A DNA stretch of 32,842 nt. It comes from an uncultured Lachnospiraceae bacterium. Its GTDB lineage: Bacteria; Bacillota; Clostridia; Lachnospirales; Lachnospiraceae. Numbering within the stretch: the first letter of the stretch is position 1; each line of letters begins with the position of its first letter. A program made the translations under genes and the position numbers. The stretch is from contig CAMVOY010000028.1 of the NCBI GenBank assembly GCA_947169235.1, forward strand, positions 1 through 32,842, written 5' to 3'. This document shows positions 8,696 to 11,071 of this stretch, in pieces. The notes under the pieces were generated by a model. That model was not told the origin of the DNA. It saw only the letters and a program-made list of their open reading frames with translations, and did no database searches.

Positions 8696-8724
8696 ATTAT
8701 ATGCTTTTTTTAAATAAATGTCAA
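8696..8724 (-). promoter_or_regulatory. Consensus sigma-A promoter for the Fn3 protein-mscS operon
   Basis: TTGACA (8719-8724), a 17-bp AT-rich spacer and TATAAT (8696-8701) match the sigma-A consensus exactly on the minus strand. The predicted start is near 8689, about 65 nt before the preferred ATG. This is strong evidence that the operon starts here and is separate from the methyltransferase gene upstream. Confidence 0.88.
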
Positions 8725-8770: not shown

Positions 8771-9874
8771 TTATATCTTTTTGACCAGATACAAATACTC
8801 CTTCACGTGGATATCTCTGCCGCTTAGGTTCCTGCTGCCGCGGAAGGTATTGTATTCTTTATCAAACACCTTTACCTCTCCGATATCGGAAAGCAAGTCT
8901 ACCATGTCATCCTTCGAGATGAATCCTTCGTCATTAAAGGAGATCAAAAGGTATTTTGCTTTTACATTTTCACAGAGCTTTCTCATCGATTCCTTGGCTG
9001 TTTTTTTACTGTTATAATCTGACTTATTCCACCCCTTTGGGATACCGGAAACCTTACTGATATCAGTCGGTTTTTCATATGTATCTATCAGGTTCAGCAT
9101 GAAGTAATTCGATCCATACGGATGCTGGTTATATGGCGGATCCATGTACGCGAGATCAACCTCGGGAAGCTCATTTACAAGCTCGTTTGCATCCTCCCTG
9201 CTTATAAAAACATCACATGAAAAATTACTGAATATCGGCTTTTTTATTTCTATATCAGAGAGTATTCTTTGGAGTGCATTTCTTCCGTTTCCTCCGTACT
9301 GACCGATACCTGTTTTCGAGTTTTTATAAAACCCTTTAAATACTCCACTGGTGTTGTTATGTACCGACGCCTCATATATAAGCGGCGCAAGTAAAAATGT
9401 CCTGTACGGCTCCGGTATTTCTTCTATCAACTGTCTCGCAGTATCGATATAATTTGCATTTCTTACGGTATAAAAAACTCTCTCATCCTTCTTTATATCC
9501 TGATCATCTTTCGGACTGTAGAGTTCAGAAATAAAGCCACTTTTCAGTGGCTCGTTATCGAGTTTATCTTTGATACTATTATAATACTTATCAAGAGTTT
9601 TTTTATCGACTTCCTCTTCGTTTGTCAGGTAGCATTTGTTTATCGTCTCGGCATACTTTTCAAGGTCATTTACATACAGCTTATCCGCATGCTGCTTCAT
9701 ATACCTCGATACTATCCCCGACCCCGAAAAGAAATCAACTATATCAAGCTTGTCCTTTTTCAGATCATGCTTCACCTCTGAAACTGCCACTCCGATGAAA
9801 TCTAGTAAAGCTCTTTTATTACCGATGTAGGTGATGATCTGCTCTGATAAGTATTCGGGCTTTTCTGTTTTCAT
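8771..9874 (-). CDS. D12-class N6-adenine DNA methyltransferase
   Basis: A 367-aa S-adenosylmethionine-dependent DNA adenine methylase of the MethyltransfD12 family. N-terminal YIGNKRALLDFI (16-27) matches the family's opening substrate/cofactor motif. FFSGSG (48-53) is the AdoMet-binding motif I, MDPPY at 244-248 is the catalytic motif IV, and HNNTSGVFKGFYK (172-184) is a conserved block of the class. The recognition sequence cannot be read. No restriction endonuclease gene is adjacent. It starts 17 bp after the RhuM-family gene, with CGGAG 10 nt before its ATG, so both are probably read from the promoter at 10948-10976. It could be an orphan methylase or the modification half of an unrecognised system. 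Confidence 0.92.
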   Translation of the reverse strand: MKTEKPEYLSEQIITYIGNKRALLDFIGVAVSEVKHDLKKDKLDIVDFFSGSGIVSRYMKQHADKLYVNDLEKYAETINKCYLTNEEEVDKKTLDKYYNSIKDKLDNEPLKSGFISELYSPKDDQDIKKDERVFYTVRNANYIDTARQLIEEIPEPYRTFLLAPLIYEASVHNNTSGVFKGFYKNSKTGIGQYGGNGRNALQRILSDIEIKKPIFSNFSCDVFISREDANELVNELPEVDLAYMDPPYNQHPYGSNYFMLNLIDTYEKPTDISKVSGIPKGWNKSDYNSKKTAKESMRKLCENVKAKYLLISFNDEGFISKDDMVDLLSDIGEVKVFDKEYNTFRGSRNLSGRDIHVKEYLYLVKKI

Positions 9875-9891: not shown

Positions 9892-10926
9892 TTATCCTCG
9901 GCTATCCTCCATCTGATCAAGCTCCAGTAGATATCTGTCATAATCCGATAAGAACTCTCGATCCTGTATCACGCGATATTTTTCATATTCACTTAATGCA
10001 TGATCCTTAGCTATCTTTGCAGAAATCTTCCCCGAGTCCTGCAACAGTTCCCTATCGTCAGCCTGTAAAAATATATCCAACCGCTCCGACCAATCATGCA
10101 TAGTCATAGGTATGTGGCGCCTTGCACGCCCCTCAGCCAAATCAAGGTACGCGGATACGATACGCTCCAACTGATATAACTCATCCTCATCCAAATAATT
10201 CTTTGCAACAACAACATCTGAAGGAATAATCTTCCCCTCCGGTGCATCCTTCCAAGTAGTCAATCCCATATGATCTTTGCCTGCATCCGCCCTCTCATAG
10301 ATAACCTCTGCAGCCGTATGACCATGTACCGCAAAATGCATCTTGTTTTGAACCTTAGCAAAAAAATCTCTAGTTTCTTTCGCATCCTTGTCGTAATCCA
10401 GCGACGTCGCGTATATATCCGTGATCTTCTGATAAAACATACGCTCTGACAACCGAATCTCCCGGATTTTCTCGAGCTGCTCATCAAAGTATTTCTGTGT
10501 CAGAACACCGCCATTGCGAAATCGTTCCTCATCCATAACCCATCCTTTGATGGTAAACGTCTTTACTATCTGGTTCGCCCAGGCTCTGAATCTGACTGCT
10601 CGCTCGTTATCCACCTTGAATCCCACAGCTATGATCATTTGGAGATTGTAATGCATGGCATTATACGTTTTTCCGTCACTTGCAGTTATTAAGTATTTCT
10701 TAATAACTGATTCTTTATCCAATTCCCCATCTTCAAAAACTTTATTAATATGCTGATTAATGTTTTGCACTGTAACACCATATAACACAGCCATCATCTT
10801 TTGCGTCAGCCATATATTCTCGTCTTCATAACGCATCTCGATGCTCTGTTCATCATCTCCGTTCGAAGCTATAAACGTGAGATACTCTGCCGCAGAAGAG
10901 TGAATCATAATATCATCCTTACCCAT
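9892..10926 (-). CDS. rhuM: RhuM-family protein (COG3943-type)
   Basis: A 344-aa member of the RhuM (virulence protein/death-on-curing-associated) family. The N-terminal part (about 30-120) holds a helix-turn-helix-like region (IWLTQKMMAVLYGVTVQNINQHI) and the diagnostic block YNLQMIIAVGFKVDNERAVRFRAWA. The C-terminal part contains VHGHTAAEVIYERADAGKDHMGLT and is of unknown biochemical function. No signal peptide or membrane segment is visible. The family is often found beside restriction-modification genes and on genomic islands, which matches the methyltransferase gene 17 bp downstream. The start at 10926 is set by AAGGAGG 9 nt upstream; an earlier in-frame ATG lies upstream of the promoter elements and cannot be used. 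The promoter carries a LexA-type box. Confidence 0.9.
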   Translation of the reverse strand: MGKDDIMIHSSAAEYLTFIASNGDDEQSIEMRYEDENIWLTQKMMAVLYGVTVQNINQHINKVFEDGELDKESVIKKYLITASDGKTYNAMHYNLQMIIAVGFKVDNERAVRFRAWANQIVKTFTIKGWVMDEERFRNGGVLTQKYFDEQLEKIREIRLSERMFYQKITDIYATSLDYDKDAKETRDFFAKVQNKMHFAVHGHTAAEVIYERADAGKDHMGLTTWKDAPEGKIIPSDVVVAKNYLDEDELYQLERIVSAYLDLAEGRARRHIPMTMHDWSERLDIFLQADDRELLQDSGKISAKIAKDHALSEYEKYRVIQDREFLSDYDRYLLELDQMEDSRG

Positions 10927-10947
10927 AAGCCAGAACCTCCTTAACAT

Positions 10948-10976
10948 ATTATAGAACATTTGTTCGTAGATGTCAA
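10948..10976 (-). promoter_or_regulatory. Consensus sigma-A promoter of the rhuM-methyltransferase cassette
   Basis: TTGACA (10971-10976), a 17-bp spacer and TATAAT (10948-10953) match the consensus exactly on the minus strand. The -10 ends only 6 nt before the AAGGAGG Shine-Dalgarno (10936-10942), so the predicted start (about 10941-10942) falls at the edge of it and the leader would be about 15-18 nt. Confidence 0.88.
10953..10966. promoter_or_regulatory. LexA (SOS/DinR) operator-like box inside the rhuM promoter spacer
   Basis: On the minus strand CGAACAAATGTTCT contains GAAC-N4-GTTC (10954-10957 and 10962-10965 on the plus strand). This is the core of the Gram-positive LexA consensus CGAACRNRYGTTCG, with 13 of 14 positions matching. 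It sits between a perfect -35 and a perfect -10, where bound repressor would block RNA polymerase. The match and placement are read directly; LexA binding is inference. Confidence 0.75.
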
Positions 10977-11009
10977 GAATCGTTTTCGATCATCAATTAT
11001 AGCAAATAA

Positions 11010-11042
11010 AAGAAATCCGCTCGCACTGCGAACGGATTTCTT
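11010..11042 (-). terminator. Intrinsic terminator of the atp operon
   Basis: AGAAATCCG (11011-11019) pairs with CGGATTTCT (11033-11041), extended by one A-T pair. An inner stem TCGC/GCGA closes on a 3-nt loop. On the minus strand the hairpin is followed by TTTATTT. It lies 30 bp past the atpC stop, matching the end of the ATP synthase operon, and just upstream of the rhuM promoter. Confidence 0.75.
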
Positions 11043-11071
11043 CCTTTTTGTTTTCAATTATTTCTACGCTA

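What the first reader, a model, noticed from the sequence alone, without database searches (positions are those of the whole stretch)
10924..10976. LexA-type SOS box embedded in a perfect promoter of a RhuM-DNA methyltransferase cassette
The spacer between an exact TTGACA and an exact TATAAT holds GAACAAATGTTC, the GAAC-N4-GTTC core of the Gram-positive LexA operator (13/14 to CGAACRNRYGTTCG). A strong promoter with a repressor site between its hexamers is the layout of a tightly repressed, damage-inducible gene. DNA damage would then switch on a RhuM-family protein and an adenine methylase together. I know of no described SOS-controlled RhuM-methylase pair. It suggests a defence, anti-prophage or mobile-element-linked role.
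Basis: partly seen in the sequence, partly recalled or inferred. Interest (0 to 1): 0.78.

Follow-up and report, generated by a model that had tools for sequence, protein, structure and literature searches.

The report
SOS-controlled rhuM gene plus orphan methylase
A bacterium of the Lachnospiraceae appears to keep a rhuM gene and a companion DNA-methylating enzyme silent under its DNA-damage repressor, and comparison with relatives suggests that rhuM genes have come under this switch more than once and often exchange the small piece expected to recognise DNA.

Summary
On the minus strand TTGACA, a 17-bp spacer and TATAAT (10976-10948) enclose GAACAAATGTTC; the 14-mer has one mismatch to the Gram-positive LexA operator. 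The genome encodes LexA, and such boxes stand before its lexA, recA, uvrB and a yneA-like gene. A sister species (P6B14) keeps box and cassette. SOS control is well supported but not shown by experiment. The novelty claim is weaker: LexA binding upstream of a gut rhuM was already shown by EMSA (PMC3998124). The rhuM-methylase pair was found in two sister species only; the methylase is a solitary member of an EcoRI-family restriction-modification lineage whose nuclease was not found here. Boxes before rhuM recur: 11 of 130 family loci examined (one included because its box was known) against 0.57 in shuffles; ten box-bearing RhuMs fall in four places of a tree. Unexpected: residues 50-92 of RhuM, predicted recognition helix and wing, differ wholesale between otherwise near-identical proteins (7 of 21 disjoint pairs, window versus P6B14 among them). 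Best reading: a LexA-repressed operon for a DNA-binding effector with an exchangeable recognition patch, plus an orphan methylase. What RhuM does is unknown.

The parts
10971..10976 (-). -35 hexamer TTGACA
   Evidence: exact
10953..10966 (-). LexA-type operator CGAACAAATGTTCT (core GAAC-N4-GTTC 10954-10965)
   Evidence: 1 mismatch to CGAACRNRYGTTCG; 12/14 to this genome's lexA box; identical in L041
10948..10953 (-). -10 hexamer TATAAT
   Evidence: exact, spacer 17 bp
10936..10942 (-). Shine-Dalgarno AAGGAGG
   Evidence: read
9892..10926 (-). rhuM (344 aa), PF13310; winged-helix N-terminal domain predicted
   Evidence: Pfam 353 bits, gathering 33.7; PADLOC candidate PDC-S05; AlphaFold mean pLDDT 76.8, pTM 0.51
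10651..10779 (-). exchangeable patch of RhuM, residues 50-92 (recognition helix and wing)
   Evidence: 47% identical to L041 while the C-terminal part from residue 96 is 100% and residues 12-49 are 97%
8771..9874 (-). D12-class N6-adenine DNA methyltransferase (367 aa), solitary, EcoRI-family R-M lineage
   Evidence: PF02086 83 bits; relatives next to EcoRI-family nucleases; no PF02963 match in this genome; 17 bases after rhuM
11008..11044 (-). terminator-like hairpin (17 pairs) after atpC, isolating the cassette
8696..8724 (-). separate 12/12 promoter-like site before the next gene (orf401), marking the likely end of the two-gene unit

Best explanation
The site is the LexA operator of a two-gene SOS operon. 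LexA sits between the -35 and -10 of a consensus promoter and blocks RNA polymerase. DNA damage leads to RecA-stimulated LexA cleavage, and rhuM and the methylase are transcribed together (inferred from the family mechanism). RhuM is most likely a DNA-binding effector: a winged helix whose recognition helix and wing (residues 50-92) are an exchangeable specificity cassette, joined to a highly conserved helical C-terminal domain of unknown activity. The methylase is an orphan from an EcoRI-family restriction-modification lineage that shares the promoter and is probably not essential to RhuM's action. Shown by sequence: operator, own-genome SOS regulon, conservation in P6B14, recurrence of boxes before rhuM, patch replacement, no nuclease match. 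Inferred: LexA binding, induction, DNA binding by RhuM, exchange by recombination, methylase activity. Likely benefit: a damage-triggered response to foreign or mobile DNA.
For: One LexA_DNA_bind gene, with box CGAACAAATGTTTG at its -35. recA has two boxes before its ATG. Of 23 distinct <=1-mismatch sites in the genome, 13 lie inside ORFs of at least 100 aa and 10 stand ahead of genes: lexA 1, recA 2, yneA-like 3, uvrB 1, rhuM 1, sufS-like 1, DUF4446 1 (the recA boxes fall inside an upstream extension of the recA frame). P6B14 (G397) has boxes at lexA, recA, uvrB, yneA-like and rhuM. The layout TTGACA-N5-GAACN4GTTC-TATAAT with <=1 mismatch occurs in 56 of 397 family genomes, reversed control 0; downstream genes include recA and radA. 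CGAACRNRYGTTYG boxes (<=1 mismatch) within 450 bp upstream of 11 of 130 family rhuM loci, shuffle mean 0.57, maximum 3 in 60 shuffles, reversed pattern 0; exact GAACN4GTTC in 6 of 130, shuffle mean 0.72, maximum 3, reversed 1. Patch replacement in 7 of 21 disjoint near-identical pairs.
Against: No binding or expression data for this locus. The closest RhuM outside the cassette (L042, 83%) stands alone and has no box. Of the other 78 assessable loci none has a <=1-mismatch CGAACNNNNGTTYG site within 200 bp; L056 has one at -201. Of 130 family rhuM loci 119 have no box. One of the 11 (L250) entered because one search had found its box; without it 10 of 129. Genome-wide box counts do not exceed the control in this genome or in G397 (15/16 against 17/21). 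Structural matches are weak (no PDB match at E <= 0.001, best 5e-3), so DNA binding and the C-terminal function are inferred.
Confidence: 0.62

Rival explanations
1. The cassette works as a diverged restriction-modification-like system under LexA, with the methylase protecting host sites and RhuM taking the place of the lost EcoRI-type nuclease.
For: The methylase's relatives in G356 (64%) and a Paracoccus plasmid (49%) are followed directly by EcoRI-family nucleases; here rhuM is the gene next to it. Some RhuM homologues lie beside type I, II and III R-M genes (121 of 146 neighbours scanned).
Against: RhuM matched no nuclease family in Pfam. The pair was found in 2 genomes only. In the 9 box-bearing loci read, no methylase or restriction model appears among the 25 of 26 PADLOC families shown for 33 of the 65 other ORFs. 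Another methylase relative, G573 (58%, genome 85% complete), has no EcoRI match either.
Confidence: 0.15
2. RhuM is an SOS-induced toxin or growth-arrest protein (the death-on-curing reading), comparable to SOS-induced toxin-antitoxin modules, and the methylase is incidental.
For: PMC3998124 calls its LexA-bound rhuM a death-on-curing protein; PMC3710099 proposes RhuM as a toxin domain because it is often fused to DOC and sits in R-M loci.
Against: No Fic/Doc domain here (Pfam finds only Virulence_RhuM above cut-off); the only partner gene in the operon is a methylase; the replaced patch is the predicted DNA-recognition part.
Confidence: 0.2
3. The box is a chance palindrome or the site of another regulator.
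For: A GAACN4GTTC core somewhere in the window occurs in 36 of 100 shuffles; genome counts do not exceed the control.
Against: Exact position in the promoter (12 of 20,000 local shuffles), similar boxes at lexA, recA and uvrB, conserved in P6B14, same layout at recA and radA of other family genomes.
Confidence: 0.05

Closest known systems
[quoted passage not shown] 2014, PMC3998124)
   Same: A rhuM gene with a LexA site, bound by B. subtilis LexA in EMSA (passages and section 3.3 read)
   Different: The main text does not contain the word methyltransferase and offers a toxin-antitoxin reading; its site sequence is in a supplement I could not open, so identity with this locus is not known
E. 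coli DinD
   Same: Works like: annotated DNA damage-inducible protein (its LexA control is recalled) of a family that matches PADLOC PDC-S13 and a type I specificity model
   Different: Not shown to be the same family: hhalign probability 0.1%; DinD carries Bro-N (32 bits), RhuM reaches 12 bits against a cut-off of 25.6. One PADLOC model (PDLC04871) is matched by DinD at positions 10-128 and by RhuM at 124-457, suggesting a fused protein
EcoRI-family type II restriction-modification systems
   Same: The methylase belongs to that lineage
   Different: No nuclease match in this genome
Target-recognition-domain exchange in type I HsdS subunits (recalled)
   Same: Works like: the recognition element is replaced while the rest stays nearly identical
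   Different: RhuM is predicted to be a winged-helix protein, not HsdS; no specificity has been measured

Membership tests
LexA (SOS) regulon | Operator of the CGAACRNRYGTTCG type in the promoter | tested here: met
   1 mismatch, between -35 and -10
LexA (SOS) regulon | LexA encoded and the same type of operator at lexA and recA of the genome | tested here: met
LexA (SOS) regulon | Operator conserved before orthologues | tested here: inconclusive
   Conserved in the one orthologous cassette (L041); absent at L042, the nearest other rhuM
LexA (SOS) regulon | LexA binding and induction by DNA damage | not testable with these tools
   needs EMSA and RNA after mitomycin C
RhuM (PF13310) | Match to the family profile above gathering score | tested here: met
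   353.4 bits, cut-off 33.7
EcoRI-family type II R-M system | Methylase of the lineage | tested here: met
   64% to G356 and 49% to the P. marcusii plasmid methylase, both followed by EcoRI-family nucleases
EcoRI-family type II R-M system | Cognate restriction endonuclease | tested here: not met
   No PF02963 match at E <= 0.1 in G000 (96.55% complete) or G397
Fic/Doc toxin | Fic/Doc domain | tested here: not met
   Pfam gives only Virulence_RhuM above cut-off
DinD family | Sequence homology to E. coli DinD / Bro-N domain | tested here: not met
Anti-phage defence system | Shown protection against phage | not testable with these tools
   PADLOC lists RhuM only as candidate PDC-S05

The most novel reading that the evidence does not exclude
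RhuM proteins are damage-induced DNA-binding effectors with an interchangeable recognition cassette: the helix and wing (residues 50-92) are replaced by recombination as a unit, giving new target specificities to an otherwise identical protein, and in Lachnospiraceae several RhuM lineages were separately placed under LexA so that the re-targeted effector acts only when DNA is damaged or invaded.
Probability: 0.33. Interest if true: 0.75.

Novelty: new variant of a known kind. Interest (0 to 1): 0.52.

Why it matters
rhuM is widespread (139 of 397 family genomes) and I found no tested function for it. Recurrent SOS boxes say when it may act, and patch exchange says which part may decide what it acts on. 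Two natural proteins that differ in that patch and hardly elsewhere (window and P6B14) make its DNA targets directly measurable.

Tried and rejected
Considered and rejected: chance palindrome (position test); a conserved RhuM-methylase system (pair only in window and L041: 80 loci, some cut by contig ends, 397 genomes, where apart from the window only G356 at 64% has a close methylase, and neither nor one search shows a rhuM in that stretch); homology to E. coli DinD (not significant, DinD given as a single sequence); Fic/Doc toxin (no domain). Led nowhere: methylase in viral contigs (none); phages (11 records, at most 33.5% identity); PDB sequence search of both proteins (nothing significant); PDB fold search (no match at E <= 0.001; best is DdrC, E 5e-3, low TM); viral fold search gave six matches at E <= 0.001, some named Bro-N or regulatory protein, all at low TM. 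GAATTC is 4 against about 8.6 expected in the window, too few to infer a methylation site. A 40-bp rhuM-like stretch (95%) in G415 at the same locus was not followed further.

Method limits: the reverse-strand loci of L132-L160 were misoriented; one search replaces it. The 130 loci are the 29 non-window loci given, L250, and 100 picked by hand from the rows listed; partial matches, starts near contig ends and unlisted rows were dropped. L250 is there because its box had been found first. The tree is a quick tree of residues from 96 on; the loci known only by their upstream stretch are not in it, so box-bearing rows are over-represented; 3 ambiguous rows were left out of the count and L156 (same gene as L377) was dropped; long branches are flagged. 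The group table of the same call shows 1 change for 'box' because it compares with the ambiguous rows alone. A first recA comparison used a wrong frame; one search repeats it correctly (95% identity). In one search a frame check of the 130 upstream stretches passed 103; the 20 failures printed were all among L132-L160 loci, where the script was one base off (my reading).

Full report
Observation. On the minus strand TTGACA and TATAAT stand 17 bp apart and the spacer ends in GAACAAATGTTC, directly against the -10. The 14-mer CGAACAAATGTTCT has one mismatch to CGAACRNRYGTTCG. A core somewhere in a 32.8-kb window is not rare (36 of 100 shuffles), but a box in the 80-bp promoter is (12 of 20,000 shuffles). 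The rhuM start is most likely ATG 10926 behind AAGGAGG, giving a leader of about 15 nt (inferred).

The unit. A 17-pair terminator-like hairpin after atpC (11008-11044) precedes the promoter, and the next gene, orf401, has its own 12/12 promoter-like site at 8724-8696. Between them lie rhuM (PF13310, 353 bits) and a D12-class adenine methylase (PF02086, 83 bits), 17 bases apart. They should be one two-gene transcript (inferred).

SOS regulon of this genome. The genome has one LexA_DNA_bind match. Its promoter carries CGAACAAATGTTTG; recA has CGAACAAGCGTTCG and CGAACAGGTTTTCG between promoter and ATG. A search with CGAACRNRYGTTYG, <=1 mismatch, gives 23 distinct sites. Thirteen lie inside ORFs of at least 100 aa; ten stand ahead of genes: lexA, recA (2), a yneA-like LysM gene (3; NCBIfam 36.6 bits, below its cut-off of 60), uvrB, rhuM, a gene of the class-V aminotransferase family that I read as sufS-like, and a DUF4446 gene. 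The number of sites does not exceed the reversed-pattern control, and the exact core is rarer than its control (24 against 57), so the argument rests on where the sites lie. In the sister species P6B14 (L041; G397, a contig of the same length) boxes precede lexA, recA, uvrB, the yneA-like gene and rhuM; there too the total does not exceed the control.

The promoter design is common. TTGACA-N5-GAACN4GTTC-TATAAT with at most one mismatch occurs in 56 of 397 genomes of the family, and the reversed control gives none. Among the genes downstream are recA (L222), radA (L237), weaker rmuC-like and sigma-like matches below cut-off (L233, L261), a DNA methylase (L267) and a distant rhuM (L250).

SOS boxes before other rhuM genes. 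Of 80 rhuM loci from named genomes only L041 has a <=1-mismatch CGAACNNNNGTTYG box within 200 bp; L056 has one at -201; L087 is cut at the contig end and was not assessable. L042, the nearest other RhuM (83%), has none and lies between a GLUG-motif and a thioredoxin gene. In the family, where 139 of 397 genomes hold a match, 11 of 130 examined loci have a CGAACRNRYGTTYG box (<=1 mismatch) within 450 bp upstream; shuffles give 0.57 on average and at most 3 (60 shuffles), the reversed pattern 0. With the exact core it is 6 of 130, shuffles 0.72 and at most 3, reversed 1. One locus had been found by its box first; without it the first count is 10 of 129. Nine of the 11 boxes lie within 150 bp of the match start. 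On a quick tree of 112 RhuM C-terminal parts the ten clear box-bearing rows need 5 changes and fall in four places; many box-less loci are not in that tree and several branches are long, so the number is rough. Nine box-bearing loci, one of them ambiguous (L377), were read further: among 33 of the 65 other ORFs no methylase or restriction model is among the 25 of 26 PADLOC families shown, though some match other defence-candidate models. One unscanned ORF, L375:1234-2019, is a general methyltransferase of the UbiE type, not a DNA methylase by Pfam. The methylase thus does not look like part of the recurring theme.

The methylase. Its closest relatives found are in P6B14 (97.5%), G356 (64%), G573 (58%) and a Paracoccus plasmid (49%). 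In G356 and the plasmid an EcoRI-family endonuclease follows directly; G573 (85% complete), the window's genome and P6B14 have no PF02963 match. It is an orphan of an EcoRI-family lineage. rhuM and methylase together were found only in the window and P6B14.

The locus. The stretch between atpC and the mechanosensitive-channel gene (PF00924) varies in the genus: in G403 the two are neighbours; P6B14 has an additional PD-(D/E)XK transposase-family gene; G415 has a 197-aa gene without Pfam match, a HAD-family gene and a 40-bp stretch 95% identical to the inside of rhuM.

Patch exchange. rhuM of the window and of P6B14 is 90-100% identical in DNA on both sides of a stretch of about 150-180 bp in which identity falls to 40-80%. 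In the model (mean pLDDT 76.8, pTM 0.51) residues 50-92 hold the helix 53-65 and the two strands 75-81 and 87-93 of a winged helix. Among 112-113 RhuM proteins 44 pairs have C-terminal parts at least 93% identical; 14 of the 44 have patch identity below 70%. Taken as 21 disjoint pairs it is 7 of 21, with residues 12-49 at 92-100%. The wing comes in two main types (64 and 47 of 111 typed rows, by a rule of my own) that change 25 times on the C-terminal tree, against 29-40 in the 20 shuffles printed: types follow the tree only loosely. I read this as exchange of a DNA-recognition cassette by recombination; specificity itself is not measured, and fast divergence under selection is not excluded, though the sharp edges speak against it. 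Four library searches (RhuM with LexA; with helix-turn-helix; with recombination, specificity and restriction-modification; PDC-S05) listed no title or abstract start on such exchange; of those papers I saw listings only, apart from the two named next.

Prior knowledge. PMC3998124 (passages and section 3.3 read) reports that a LexA site of a gut rhuM is bound by B. subtilis LexA. PMC3710099 (passages read) proposes RhuM as a toxin domain of R-M loci. So SOS control of rhuM extends known work; its recurrence in the family, the co-transcribed orphan methylase and the patch exchange go beyond what I saw.

Mechanism and confidence. LexA repression is likely (about 0.85 on its own). That RhuM is a DNA-binding effector with an exchangeable patch is plausible; its action on DNA, the role of its conserved C-terminal domain and any defence role are open.

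Noticed in passing
L197:786-2057 and L021 (G000:C25:27075-27088): A perfect LexA-type box (CGAACAAGTGTTCG) 18 bp before a sufS-like gene (class-V aminotransferase family); P6B14 has a 1-mismatch version at the same gene (CGAACAAGTGCTCG, L390).
   Followed up: partly
L162:2567-2606 (G415): A 40-bp stretch 95% identical to the inside of rhuM just before a HAD-family gene at the same atpC locus, possibly the scar of a lost or recombined rhuM.
   Followed up: partly
L041:3656-4606: A PD-(D/E)XK nuclease family transposase gene between atpC and the rhuM promoter in P6B14.
   Followed up: no
L251:1085-1113 (G000:C80:5684-5712): A second exact TTGACA-N5-GAACN4GTTC-TATAAT promoter in the window's genome, near a contig end; only a 62-aa frame downstream in the stretch held.
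   Followed up: partly
L267:1248-2105 (G337): A DNA methylase (N6_N4_Mtase, 90 bits) as first gene behind a one-mismatch version of the SOS promoter layout.
   Followed up: partly
L227, L228, L239, L242, L243, L245, L247-L249, L262, L265: A small gene of about 95-115 aa (motif DVICQH or close to it) lies behind the SOS promoter layout in these 11 loci; no Pfam or NCBIfam family above cut-off for the one tested (L255, the same gene as in L247).
   Followed up: partly
G000:C33:28710-29381 (L192): A second, shorter RhuM homologue (45%) at the end of a contig of the window's genome.
   Followed up: no
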